DNA from: Onthophagus taurus
Lineage: Eukaryota; Arthropoda; Insecta; Coleoptera; Scarabaeidae
Assembly: GCF_036711975.1 (NCBI RefSeq)
Contig: NC_091973.1
Span: 3,968,001-4,032,000, forward strand
Direction of reading: 5' to 3'
DNA length: 64,000 nucleotides
The position numbers and the translations under genes were made by a program. Shown in pieces: positions 11,806 through 62,225 of this stretch (position 1 is its first letter; every line of letters begins with the position of its first letter). The notes beneath the pieces were generated by a model. It was not told the origin of the DNA and did no database searches. It was given only the letters and a program-made list of their open reading frames with translations.

Positions 11806-14800
11806 ATGTTAAAAATTCGTTGTAGAGTGGAATGGGTCGAAATAATCGAGCCCCGTACGGGGGAGCATATGTACGCAAATTTGGCAACTGGAGAATGCGT
11901 ATGGGATCCCCCAGAAGGTGTCCCGGTGAAGCGAACAGACTCCAACCAGTGGTGGGAACTATTCGATACGAACACGGCTAGATTTTATTATTACAATGCA
12001 AGTTCTCGACGTACCGTTTGGCACAAACCTACCAATTGTGATATCATTCCTCTCGCCAAGTTACAAACCCTTAAACATAATACAGACTATTCCCCTGCTG
12101 CGACCAGTCACCAAAGTACCCAAACAGGCGAAACCGTAAGCAGGGGCCAAGTGTTAAGCTTATCAGCCAGTACACCACAATTAAGAAGAAAATCGACGGA
12201 TTTATGTAGAAGTAGTAGCTTTAGTCAACGTGTACCAGAAGCCCCTTTATATTCAAACTGGCACGATACAAATTTATTGCCATTAGAACACTTCTTATTA
12301 AAAAATAGTAGAGATACCGACAGTGAACATTCGGATTCAGGTAGTGGATCTTTAACAGGTCATGAACCTGACAATGAAGATTCAGATCAATCCGATGATT
12401 TGCCTCGAAATGCGCGTAATCCCGAGTACCTTAATCTTCCAACCTCCGTTCCTGAACCCCCCAGAGAACGAGCACCCGCTCCTCTGCTCAAACCGCTTGC
12501 CGAACCTCCCTTACAACCCGAACGAGAGGCTGACATGGAAAAATTTGCCGCCGACAATTTAAATCTAGGCGGACGAGGTTTGTTTAGAAGAAAAGCTAGT
12601 GTACGAGACTTACTCAGTTGGTCAAATAGAGGTTTATCACGTCCATTACTAGCTTCTAGTAAATCTGTAGCTCGACAAGCATTGGAAATATTCCGTCAAG
12701 TACAAATGTACATGGGCGACCGGAAATCTCGACCGGACGTCACCAAAAACTGTCTACTTATGGAAATATTAAACGCAGCTTACGCCAAACCTTTACTTAG
12801 AGACGAATTATTCGTCCAACTTTGTCGACAAACCACCGAGAATCACTCGAAGGAATCATTGCTTCAAGGTTGGGAATTACTTACAATCGCTTTAGCCTTT
12901 GTACCACCCAGCCCTGAATTTCAACCCGCTTTACTTGGATATTTAAATCGACATAGAGATCCTACATTTGCCAGGGTCTTTCCAGAAGTTAGTAGGTGGC
13001 CTATACATGTACAGGTATATATAATTTTATAATATATTATGTTCAATAATTTAAAATTTCTTTTCTTTTAGTATTTTATATTTACATTCAAAATATTTAT
13101 ACCTTTTTTGCTTTTTTATTTGTCCATGTATGCTTTCATAGCATTTAATAATACCTAGTCTCTTCTGACTCATATTGGAAATTAAATGGCAGATGATCAA
13201 GCATAAACAGTTCGAAGACGTCGGCCGCCCCAAGTGTGACAAACATCAAGATTATGTGAAAGCTGATTTGGAATCGTCGGCCGACATCTTCGAAGACTTC
13301 ACCAGTATTATTCCAGATATTTTCTTGCTGTTTAGAATTTGGACAGATTCTTCTTCGTTTGAGATAGAAACCAACCTCGGCCGACTTCGAAGACGTCGGC
13401 CGCTCCAAGTGTCACAAACATCAAGATTACGTGAAAGCTGATTTGGAAACGTCGGCCGACGTCTTCGAAGACGGCCGTGGTTATTTCTCCGTTAGGTCCA
13501 TATGGCGTAAACTCGGTTTTACGAGGCCAAGAATCGATCAGGTTTTGACATAGCCTTAGTTTTCGTTGTACTCAGGGTCGGCCGACGTCTTCGAAGACGG
13601 CCGTGTCAGTGCAAAAATGTTTGTAGTTTGAACTTTACCAGTATTATTCCAGATATTTTCATTCTGTTTAGAATTTGGACAGATTCTTCTTCGTTTGAGA
13701 TAGAAACCAACCTCGGCCGACTTCGAAGACGTCGGCCGCTCCAAGTGTCACAAACATCAAGATTATGTGAAAGCTGATTTGAAATCGTCGGCCGACATCT
13801 TCGAAGACTTCACCAGTATTATTCCAGATATTTTCATTCTGTTTAGAATTTGGGCAGATTCTTCTTCGTTTGAGATAGAAACCAACCTCGGCCGACTTCG
13901 AAGACGTCGGCCGCTCCAAGTGTCACAAAGATCATATTACGTGAAAGCTCATTTGGAATCGTCGGCCGACGTCTTCGAAGACGGCCGTGGTTATTTCTCC
14001 GTTAGGTCCATATGGCGTAAACTCGGTTTTACGAGGCCAAGAATCCATCAGGTTTTGACATAGTCTTAGTGTTCGTTGTACTCAGGGTCGGCCGACGTCT
14101 TCGAAGACGGCCGTGTCAGTACAAAAATGTTTATAGTTAGAACTTAACCAGTATTATTCCAGATATTTACATTCTGTTTAGAGTTTGGGCAGATTCTTCT
14201 TCGTTTGAGATAGAAACCAACCTCGGTCGACTTCGAAGACGTCGGCCGCCCCAAGTGCCACATACATCAAGATTACGTGAAGGCTGATTTGGAATCGTCG
14301 GCCGACGTCTTCGAAGACGGCCGTGGTTACTTCTCCGTTAGGTTTATATGATGTAGACTCGGTTTTACGAGGCCAAGAATCCATCAGGTTACTGATTCAC
14401 GCTCAGCCGTTTCAGAACAAAAGTGAACTTTGCCAGTATTATTCCAGATATTTTCTTGCTGTTTAGAATTTGGACAAATTCTTCTTCGTTTGAGATAAAA
14501 AGTAACCTAGGCCGACGTATCATCAAGACTACATGAAAACTGATTTGGAATCGAAAAAGAATTTCTGACTTGGTTGGGTTGGGATTTTCATCATTATACT
14601 TGTATAGCTTCCTTTTAGTAAAAAATTTTATTTTATTGAACATAATATTAATTTGATGTATTAATATTTTTACAAATAAATATATACATTTTTTATTAAA
14701 GGTCAATCATTACGCTACAGTTGCTTGCCAAAGATTAGAACGTATAGGAACGGGTGGTAAACGGACCGCTCGTCGACCAGTGATAGACGACATCGAGTCG

Positions 14801-15418
14801 GCACGAACCCAAATATTTCAAGCGAGCTTATTCGGAAATACATTACGCGAAGTAATGCAACTTCAAGTAACCCGTTGGCCGAACCGGAAATTGCCTTGGC
14901 CGCAAGTTGAACTTTCGCAACAAGTACTTCGATTGCAAGGTTTAAGTACAGAAGGAATCTTTCGAGTTTCCGCGGACGTAGACGAAGTAGCCCGTCTGAA
15001 AGCGCAGATGGACCGTTGGGAATTATCCGAGCCTAGCGACGCTCACGTTCCAGCTAATCTGTTAAAATTATGGTTGCGCGAACTTTACGAGCCATTAATT
15101 CCTGACTCATTGTACCCAGAATGTATAGCAGAGCCAATGACGCCACGAAGAGCTTGTGATTTGGTGCTGCGATTACCAACACTACATCGTTTGGTTCTCT
15201 GCTATTTAATACGATTCTTGCAGACTTTTAATCAACCGGAGGTCGTTCAACATACCAAAATGGACGCATCGAATTTAGCGATGGTGTTTGCGCCAAATTG
15301 TTTAAGATGTACGGCAACTGATCCGCGTACAATGTTCGATAACGCTCGAAAGGAAATGGCTTTTATGCGATGTTTAATTCAAGAGCTGGACACCGAGTGT
15401 GTACGCGAAATGATATGA
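11806..15418 (+). CDS. RhoGAP93B: Vilse / RhoGAP93B / ARHGAP39-type RhoGAP, 2 coding exons
   Basis: Vilse (CrossGAP) is a Rac/Cdc42 GAP that acts downstream of Robo in axon and tracheal guidance. Exons 11806-13014 and 14702-15418 join in phase 0 (HVQ|VNHY) to give 641 aa. Two WW domains sit at about residues 8-38 (W10, W33, P36) and 48-77 (W49, W72, P75), followed by a Ser-rich linker, a MyTH4 domain (about 285-403) and a RhoGAP domain (about 440-640) with the catalytic arginine finger in [15 protein letters not shown] (R491) and the [10 protein letters not shown] signature. Known relatives exceed 1000 aa; the linker here is short. An in-frame TGA 10-12 nt before the ATG makes it the first start in this exon, but TTGTAG ending at 11825 could be an acceptor, which would give another N-terminus. 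The intron holds palindrome array A. Confidence 0.93.
13200..14530. repeat. Palindrome array A (GGCCGAC family) in the Vilse intron
   Basis: Copies of the GC-rich core (arms CGGCCGAC and GTCGGCCG, centre with TTCGAA) alternate with two spacers. One contains ACCAGTATTATTCCAGATAT, beginning near 13299, 13637, 13813, 14148 and 14434; the other contains CAAGTGTCACAAACATC. A third spacer (GTTATTTCTCCGTTAGGTC to GGTTTTGACATAG) is repeated at about 13470 and 13985. Irregular spacings (about 338, 176, 335 and 286 bp) show units gained or lost whole modules. Long open frames over the array are repeat artefacts. Confidence 0.9.
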
Positions 15419-15888
15419 TATCCATCCCAATCCCTCCTTCAACAATATCATTTCCATTTTTCTTTTTGCCATATTTAGATATTGAGAGAGACAGACAGGT
15501 TCCGTTTCTGTTTTTAAAAGCAGCTTGATCGCCTAAGTTGTATTTCGAGTACCTACTTTTAATATATTGAACCTAACCCGAAACACCTTGTATATCAAAA
15601 CATGTATATTAAATAAAAATGTTTCGTCTTTTATTTACCTTATAGATTCTTTTTTTTATTTTCTTTTTTTGTACCAATGAGACAAATAATAAAAATAAAC
15701 TAGGCAATCAAATGTATGCATATCGATCGTAGCAAGTGTTTTCAAATAAATAGAACTATCTATCGAAAAATATATGTTTATTATAAACACCTTGCAAACA
15801 TCATAAAGATTCTTGATTTATTTTTACTTATAACTTTGAAGCTAACCTAAAATGGTATATTTTTCCCGCCAATTCTAAAACGATCACG
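15419..15888 (+). other. Vilse 3' UTR and WRNexo 5' flank
   Basis: A poly(A) signal AATAAA at 15612-15617 lies 194 bp after the Vilse stop and probably ends that transcript. The rest is AT-rich spacer leading to the WRNexo start, with an E2F-type site near its right end. Confidence 0.55.
15862..15870 (+). promoter_or_regulatory. E2F consensus site upstream of WRNexo
   Basis: TTTCCCGCC matches the E2F consensus TTTSSCGC and lies 18 bp before the start codon of a DNA-repair exonuclease. The surrounding DNA is AT-rich, so a chance match is less likely. Binding is inferred. Confidence 0.5.
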
Positions 15889-62000: not shown

Positions 62001-62149
62001 AGTGTCTAATGTGTTATCTATGAAGTTTCGCATGATTCTACTACTCGTGATACGCGTGATCTGCCAAATCGGTCTTGCCATCGGTTTTTCGTGAGATAAA
62101 CTTGCTTTTATTTGATAGTCTGGATCCCATCTCACTTGAAATTGATTTA
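59097..62149. other. Intron or intergenic stretch
   Basis: No gene, RNA or clear repeat recognised. Confidence 0.4.
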
Positions 62150-62225
62150 AAAAGTAACCACGGCCGTCTTCGAAGACGTCGGCCGACACCAAGTGCTACC
62201 AACACCAAGACTATGTGAAACATAA
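62150..62225 (+). repeat. Isolated GGCCGAC-family core
   Basis: One core (ACGGCCGTCTTCGAAGACGT then CGGCCGAC) with array A-type flank (CACCAAGTGCTACCAACACC, AAGACTATGTGAAA). A single dispersed unit outside any array. Confidence 0.8.

What the first reader, a model, noticed from the sequence alone, without database searches (positions are those of the whole stretch)
13200..62225. A CpG-dense palindromic core shared by at least six arrays whose spacers differ
The sequence shows a 25-nt core (8-nt arms CGGCCGAC and GTCGGCCG around GTCTTCGAA) dozens of times in arrays A-F and in relics at 53.8 and 62.2 kb, in introns of at least one known gene (Vilse) and probably a second. It is kept almost unchanged while the AT-rich spacers are array-specific. 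A core more conserved than its spacers suggests selection, gene conversion, mobility of the core, or use as a protein site. Which applies is inference. I know no described family with this core.
Basis: partly seen in the sequence, partly recalled or inferred. Interest (0 to 1): 0.75.

Follow-up and report, generated by a model that had tools for sequence, protein, structure and literature searches.

The report
Insect satellite with conserved palindromic box
Across an insect genome, and mostly on one chromosome, many short tandem-repeat arrays share one 25-letter near-palindrome that has changed far less than the DNA around it, which suggests that something in the cell recognises it or keeps copying it.

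Summary
The observation largely holds. The core CGGCCGACGTCTTCGAAGTCGGCCG occurs 33 times exactly in the window, in six arrays; one lies in a Vilse/RhoGAP93B intron. The genome (290.8 Mb) has 1,436 sites with one position left free and 2,406 within 3 mismatches; reversed controls give 0. A ~59-bp ancestral unit is visible. Contig C8, which holds the window, dominates: C1-C7 (68% of the genome) list 45 exact sites, and 18 of 21 clusters in fully listed searches are on C8. With a bait lacking core letters, loci that keep the core (27 of 38) differ by 5.8% in the core against 34-41% in flanks; with damaged cores included, 29.8% against 47-57%. Cores survive in 26 of 31 baited loci on C8 but 1 of 7 elsewhere. 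Arm changes are rarely compensated, loop positions are held too, and flank switching at cores is not raised. Best reading: a euchromatic satellite whose box is a protein-recognition site, CENP-B-box-like. Core-limited homogenisation on C8 is a close rival. C8's sex linkage is unresolved.

The parts
13213..14520 (.). Array A: cores in both orientations in a ~510-bp higher-order unit, inside the Vilse/RhoGAP93B intron (13,015 to about 14,701)
   Evidence: intron
24509..26303 (.). Array B
28756..29202 (.). Array B2: a 447-bp copy (95.7%) of 25,796-26,242 of array B, between direct repeats of 98.4% identity (28,196-28,757 and 29,208-29,760); its right end coincides with the first base of a core in B
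   Evidence: core position
32374..35024 (.). Array D: units of 409 and 487 bp; 8 of 9 scored cores in one orientation
38118..40022 (.). Array E: inverted cores with palindromic spacers; ends approximate
42480..44440 (.). Array F: same spacer type as E; ends approximate
53756..53773 (+). Truncated core relic (read by eye)
   Evidence: sequence
62161..62185 (-). Isolated core relic, 1 mismatch
11794..13014 (+). Open frame ending in the exon (WW and MyTH4 domains) upstream of array A; its true start was not determined
14702..15415 (+). Open frame with the RhoGAP domain downstream of array A; exon end not determined

Best explanation
It is a dispersed euchromatic satellite family. The ancestral monomer is about 59 bp: the 25-bp core plus roughly AGATTATTTCTTATATCACGAACAATACTTGGGG, since rearranged into inverted and higher-order units (shown). 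Listed sites are strongly concentrated on contig C8 (shown within the limits of the listings). Where the core persists it differs several times less between loci than its flanks, along its whole length including the unpaired centre (shown). [quoted passage not shown] Arrays grow by tandem duplication and by copying of array pieces (B2 is one case), and cores are lost by slippage between their CGGCCG or CG ends (inferred from residues).
For: Genome counts with zero controls. Units of 57-59 bp in L013, L015, L022, L025. C8 concentration. Core-free bait (209 sites in all, 100 listed): 39 sites picked by hand and fetched (7 on C1-C7, 32 on C8), 38 scored; core exact in 17, within 4 mismatches in 27, at 6 or more in 11. 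In 24 non-redundant loci of the 27, pairwise difference is 5.8% in the core, 41.3% in the 15 bp to its left, 34.5% in the 16 bp beyond the bait. Variant-by-locus counts average 7.4 at loop positions (5.3 without position 8) against 9.4 in the arms, and 5.3 at A/T against 10.0 at G/C positions, p 0.03, so the sequence itself is held rather than pairing or GC content. A second palindrome family shares the inner motif.
Against: No protein, binding data or second species. Over all 38 bait loci, damaged cores included, the contrast falls to 29.8% against 47-57%. Outside C8 only 1 of 7 baited cores is within 4 mismatches, against 26 of 31 on C8 (Fisher p 0.001): this may mean C8-specific upkeep, or simply that C8 arrays are young or homogenised. 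Within arrays the core is only slightly better kept, and worse in L001, L013 and L018. Conservation fades gradually into the flanks, as conversion would also give. Similarity to the CENP-B box is weak: 7 of 9 recalled essential bases, reached by 241 of 5,000 shuffled palindromes.
Confidence: 0.42

Rival explanations
1. Neutral homogenisation: the core is the stretch that diverged arrays still share, so ectopic conversion, template switching or repeated amplification among C8 arrays keeps it uniform without any bound protein.
For: Cores are intact in 26 of 31 baited loci on C8, where arrays are dense, and in 1 of 7 elsewhere. Conservation fades outward from the core. Arrays are full of recent duplications, and B2 is a copied piece whose right end coincides with a core edge (one case).
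Against: Flank switching at cores is no more frequent than at control anchors in the same arrays (0.174 against 0.169 per anchor, 19 arrays). GC-biased conversion would not hold A/T positions best. A 25-bp limit is short for known conversion (own knowledge).
Confidence: 0.36
2. Structural element: what matters is the hairpin or cruciform (fork stalling, recombination hotspot or hairpin RNA), not the sequence.
For: Perfect 8-bp arms; several arrays alternate orientation with palindromic spacers; precise losses of the hairpin.
Against: Arm changes, counted per variant and locus, are 87 one-sided broken, 47 one-sided wobble, 5 two-sided paired, 3 two-sided broken. The loop is held like the arms. 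No excess switching at cores.
Confidence: 0.1
3. Mobile micro-palindrome or remnant of a foldback/TIR transposon: the core, or a short unit holding it, inserts into unrelated DNA.
For: Exact presence/absence between near-identical copies: 23 nt leaving CG (L010, L016), 25 nt leaving nothing (L024); cores whose outer flanks look unrelated, such as L028, L029.
Against: Among 34 shortened sites, 10 leave six bases (8 of them CGGCCG, six of these in L011) and 4 leave CG (3 loci), as slippage between the terminal repeats predicts; a second core in L010 is missing with a 26-nt gap, not a clean unit. Stretches shared by 3 or more loci are mostly the arrays themselves; others, as in L001, L019, L020, L023, L028, were not all identified.
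Confidence: 0.1

Closest known systems
CENP-B box of primate alpha satellite (PMC3694981, passages; box letters recalled)
   Same: A short motif kept in satellite monomers and bound by a protein.
   Different: Here a 25-bp near-palindrome in dispersed, partly intronic arrays; box similarity weak; no binder known.
Box 1/Box 2 of Meloidogyne satellites (PMC3694981, passages)
   Same: A 17-bp motif with a single change between monomers that share 32% identity; higher-order repeats.
   Different: There monomer junctions lie at the boxes; here switching at the core equals that at control anchors.
Palindromes at junctions of repeats on the Nasonia PSR chromosome (seen only as mention and reference in PMC5139131; the 1994 paper not read)
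   Same: Palindromes at satellite junctions on one insect chromosome.
   Different: A B chromosome; sequences not compared.
Drosophila X-linked 1.688 satellite (PMC11228850, PMC6063223, PMC5788526: listing with the start of each abstract)
   Same: Satellite copies tied to one chromosome.
   Different: Sequence not compared; C8 not shown to be a sex chromosome; no transcription data.
Tribolium euchromatic and dyad-symmetric satellites (PMC10218199, PMC13081366: passages)
   Same: Many satellite families in a beetle; inverted sub-arrays.
   Different: Dyads there span kilobases in putative (peri)centromeres; the passages seen mention no such shared core.

Membership tests
Satellite DNA (dispersed euchromatic) | Tandem arrays of a common monomer at many loci | tested here: met
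   tandem units at most fetched loci, 57-59 bp in L013, L015, L022, L025; 1,436 sites with one free position genome-wide
Satellites sharing a conserved box (CENP-B box / Meloidogyne Box 1 type) | Short motif far less variable than the rest of divergent monomers | tested here: met
   5.8% against 34-41% where the core is present (27 of 38 loci); 29.8% against 47-57% over all 38
Satellites sharing a conserved box (CENP-B box / Meloidogyne Box 1 type) | Monomer junctions concentrated at the box (Meloidogyne) | tested here: not met
   0.174 flank switches per core against 0.169 per control anchor
CENP-B box itself | Nine essential bases (recalled) | tested here: not met
   7 of 9 at best; 241 of 5,000 shuffled palindromes reach this
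Foldback/TIR DNA transposon or MITE | Common element body or ends with target-site duplication at empty sites | tested here: inconclusive
   residues CGGCCG, CG, CCG or none; no clear shared body, some shared stretches unidentified
X-chromosome recruitment satellite (1.688 type) | Lies on the X chromosome | tested here: inconclusive
   Recalled Muller-F markers scatter: RpS3A on C16, MUN genes on C10 and C8, ephrins on C7, C8, C11
X-chromosome recruitment satellite (1.688 type) | Gives siRNA or recruits a chromosome-wide complex | not testable with these tools
   No RNA or chromatin data
Structured RNA / hairpin element | Compensatory changes in arms | tested here: not met
   5 two-sided paired against 134 one-sided changes

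The most novel reading that the evidence does not exclude
The 25-bp core is the recognition site of an undescribed sequence-specific protein that marks one insect chromosome through many euchromatic satellite arrays, in a chromosome-wide regulatory or selfish (drive or segregation) role. That cores survive on C8 and decay elsewhere would follow from this, and the second palindrome family with the same inner motif would be another site for the same protein.
Probability: 0.17. Interest if true: 0.85.

Novelty: new variant of a known kind. Interest (0 to 1): 0.52.

Why it matters
The conserved satellite box with a known binder is centromeric. Here a box sits in dispersed, partly intronic arrays, is held along its whole length including the centre of the palindrome, and is concentrated, and better preserved, on one contig. 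That makes an old question testable: whether a satellite can spread, or serve its host, because a protein reads one short site in it. If C8 proves sex-linked or the binder a chromosome-wide factor, this would be a beacon system outside Drosophila. If only homogenisation is at work, it would show that conversion can hold a 25-bp island constant.

Tried and rejected
Rejected or weakened. (1) Search artefact: most loci were fetched with the core, so conservation was re-measured with an 18-mer flank bait without core letters; the contrast stayed, smaller when damaged cores are counted. (2) Hairpin-only selection: few compensated changes, loop held. (3) GC-biased conversion: A/T positions vary least. 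(4) Core as recombination hotspot in arrays: no excess. (5) Core as necessarily mobile: residues fit slippage. (6) C8 as ancestral insect X by Muller-F markers (recalled): markers lie on C7, C8, C10, C11, C16; the Eph-domain search found nothing. (7) CENP-B box identity. (8) Literature: four core 14-mers in 0 papers; the 12 papers shown of 15,819 in a PSR search were not on PSR palindromes by title, and none was opened.

Limits. Listings stop at 100 places, and on C8 the core listing shows only plus-strand sites although exact minus-strand cores exist in the same stretch, so C8 listings are incomplete. The 37 exact cores in held C1-C7 loci are all listed, but those loci were chosen from the list. 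Counts on C9-C33 are unknown; C16 holds at least one array (L080). The 21 clusters were counted per search (two from different searches lie 9.9 kb apart) and may not be independent, so the p value is nominal. Species and order were not identified; the mitochondrial gene order in L009 was judged by eye. In one search the position filter dropped 1 of 39 bait loci, L060, whose two bait sites both have exact cores; L077 is the same site as in L010. One search prints at most 14 segments per locus, so the window's list is cut.

Full report
Observation. The window holds 33 exact copies of the 25-mer and 86 places within 5 mismatches; none arose in 20 simulated windows. They form arrays A, B, B2, D, E, F plus relics. 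Array A lies in an intron of a gene with WW, MyTH4 and RhoGAP domains, in that order, which I take as Vilse/RhoGAP93B. Other frames nearby match EnY2, a 3'-5' exonuclease, the WASH WAHD domain and Ferry subunit 3.

Genome context. The window is C8:3,968,001-4,032,000 of a 290.8-Mb genome in 33 contigs. The core with one free position occurs 1,436 times, and within 3 mismatches 2,406 times; reversed controls give 0. Exact sites listed on C1-C7 number 45 in 23 clusters over 196.9 Mb; all 37 exact cores in held loci there are in that list, though those loci were chosen from it. Listings stop at 100 places, so C9-C33 were not counted. In the three searches listed in full, 18 of 21 clusters are on C8, 2 on C1, 1 on C16 (nominal binomial p 3e-18). 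Of 202 sites of the core followed by AGGTT, 12 are on C1-C7. A flank 18-mer without core letters gives 209 sites: 16 on C1-C7, and the other 84 listed are on C8.

Anatomy. Loci on C1, C6 and C8 contain head-to-tail units of 57-59 bp, so the ancestral monomer is about 59 bp. Most arrays are rearranged into longer or inverted units of about 100 to 570 bp, and flanks beyond about 15 bp differ widely between loci.

Is the core really better conserved? Loci fetched by the core cannot answer this. Of the 100 listed bait sites I picked 39 by hand, about one per cluster; 38 were scored. The core is exact in 17, within 4 mismatches in 27, and at 6 or more in 11. Among 24 non-redundant loci with a core, pairwise difference is 5.8% in the core, 41.3% in the 15 bp on its left and 34.5% in the 16 bp beyond the bait. 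The cut at 4 mismatches favours the core; over all 38 loci, deletions and out-of-register ends included, the figures are 29.8%, 56.9% and 47.4%. Two one-position variants are rare genome-wide: 9 sites (6 in one cluster) and 10. Against this, copies inside arrays differ by a median 7.1% in core and 9.4% in spacer in the 12 loci with enough data (core lower in 11, p 0.027); over all 17 loci the core is lower in 14 and higher in L001, L013 and L018.

C8 against the rest. The core is within 4 mismatches at 26 of 31 scored bait sites on C8 and at 1 of 7 on C1-C7 (Fisher p 0.001). So the marked conservation is mainly a C8 matter. Upkeep on C8, homogenisation among dense arrays, or younger age could each explain this.

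What kind of constraint? Over 326 sites in 30 loci, counted per variant and locus (up to 5 mismatches), one-sided arm changes (134) far outnumber two-sided paired ones (5); loop positions are no more variable than arms; A/T positions are less variable than G/C. CpG is not depleted. Flank switching at cores equals that at control anchors. This points to the sequence itself being read, or to homogenisation limited to the core.

Presence and absence. Near-identical tandem copies differ by the core: 23 nt leaving CG in L010 and L016, 25 nt leaving nothing in L024; a second core in L010 is missing with a 26-nt gap. A scan found 34 shortened sites: 10 with six bases left (8 of them CGGCCG, six in L011) and 4 with CG in 3 loci; further cases were read in L043, L045, L051 and L074. 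Slippage between the terminal CGGCCG or CG repeats explains these; insertion at CG is possible but not needed.

Spread. B2 is a 447-bp copy of array B between two direct repeats of 98.4% identity, and its right end stops at the first base of a core. It looks like a duplication with a copied filler; it is a single case. Stretches shared by 3 or more loci are mostly the arrays and second-family arrays; some others were not identified.

A second palindrome. The window (54.2-54.75 and 58.1-59.1 kb) and seven other loci on C1, C3, C5, C6 and C8 carry GGGTTTAGCCG(C/T)ACGTCTC..AAGACGGCTAAACCC-like copies (30-mer, up to 7 mismatches). Its inner part aligns to array A's core variant with a score reached by 1 of 20,000 shuffled palindromes, and to the main core with one reached by 35. 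The comparison was made after noticing it, so it is suggestive only.

Chromosome identity. Recalled Muller-F markers were sought to ask whether C8 is an X: RpS3A is on C16, one MUN gene on C10 and one on C8, ephrins on C7, C8 and C11. The question stays open.

Known relatives. Conserved boxes in divergent satellites are known (CENP-B box; Meloidogyne Box 1, PMC3694981, passages), and palindromes at satellite junctions too (PMC5139131, passages). This family differs by its dispersed, partly intronic arrays, its concentration on one contig, and the constraint along the whole palindrome. No paper in the held library contains the four core 14-mers searched; supplements, Repbase and most subscription papers were not searched.

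Conclusion. Shown: a large satellite family with a sharply conserved 25-bp core, concentrated and best kept on C8. Inferred: a sequence-specific binder (about 42%), with core-limited homogenisation close behind (36%).

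Noticed in passing
window 54200-54747 and 58130-59099; L002, L013, L020-L023, L028: A second palindrome family, GGGTTTAGCCG(C/T)ACGTCTC..AAGACGGCTAAACCC-like with CTAGAACTAGAA-type spacers, shares the inner ACGTCT..AAG motif with the core; most of these loci are on contigs other than C8.
   Followed up: partly
window 46231-48569: A 175-bp AT-rich tandem satellite (13.4 copies); diverged relatives (76-94%) lie near or between cores in L010, L014-L017 and L027.
   Followed up: partly
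window 28196-29760: A 562-bp direct duplication (98.4%) encloses a 447-bp copy of part of array B, as if a duplication had picked up a copied filler.
   Followed up: partly
L041-L047 against L048-L079: Baited cores are intact on C8 (26 of 31 within 4 mismatches) and mostly damaged on C1-C7 (1 of 7).
   Followed up: partly
L009 (C1:21445288-21449628): A mitochondrial segment (part of ND2, COX1, COX2, part of ATP6, open under code 5) sits beside a frame that looks like a reverse transcriptase: a young nuclear mitochondrial copy or an assembly join (judged by eye).
   Followed up: no
L080 (C16:2267700-2268050): Three core-like copies with T-rich spacers on the 3.24-Mb contig C16, which also carries RpS3A.
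   Followed up: no
window arrays B and D, e.g. 24690-24760 and 32930-33000: Another module, TGATATTGGTTGCATACTTGCAATGATGACG with AATTAATTA nearby, recurs among arrays (5 of 28 sequences).
   Followed up: no
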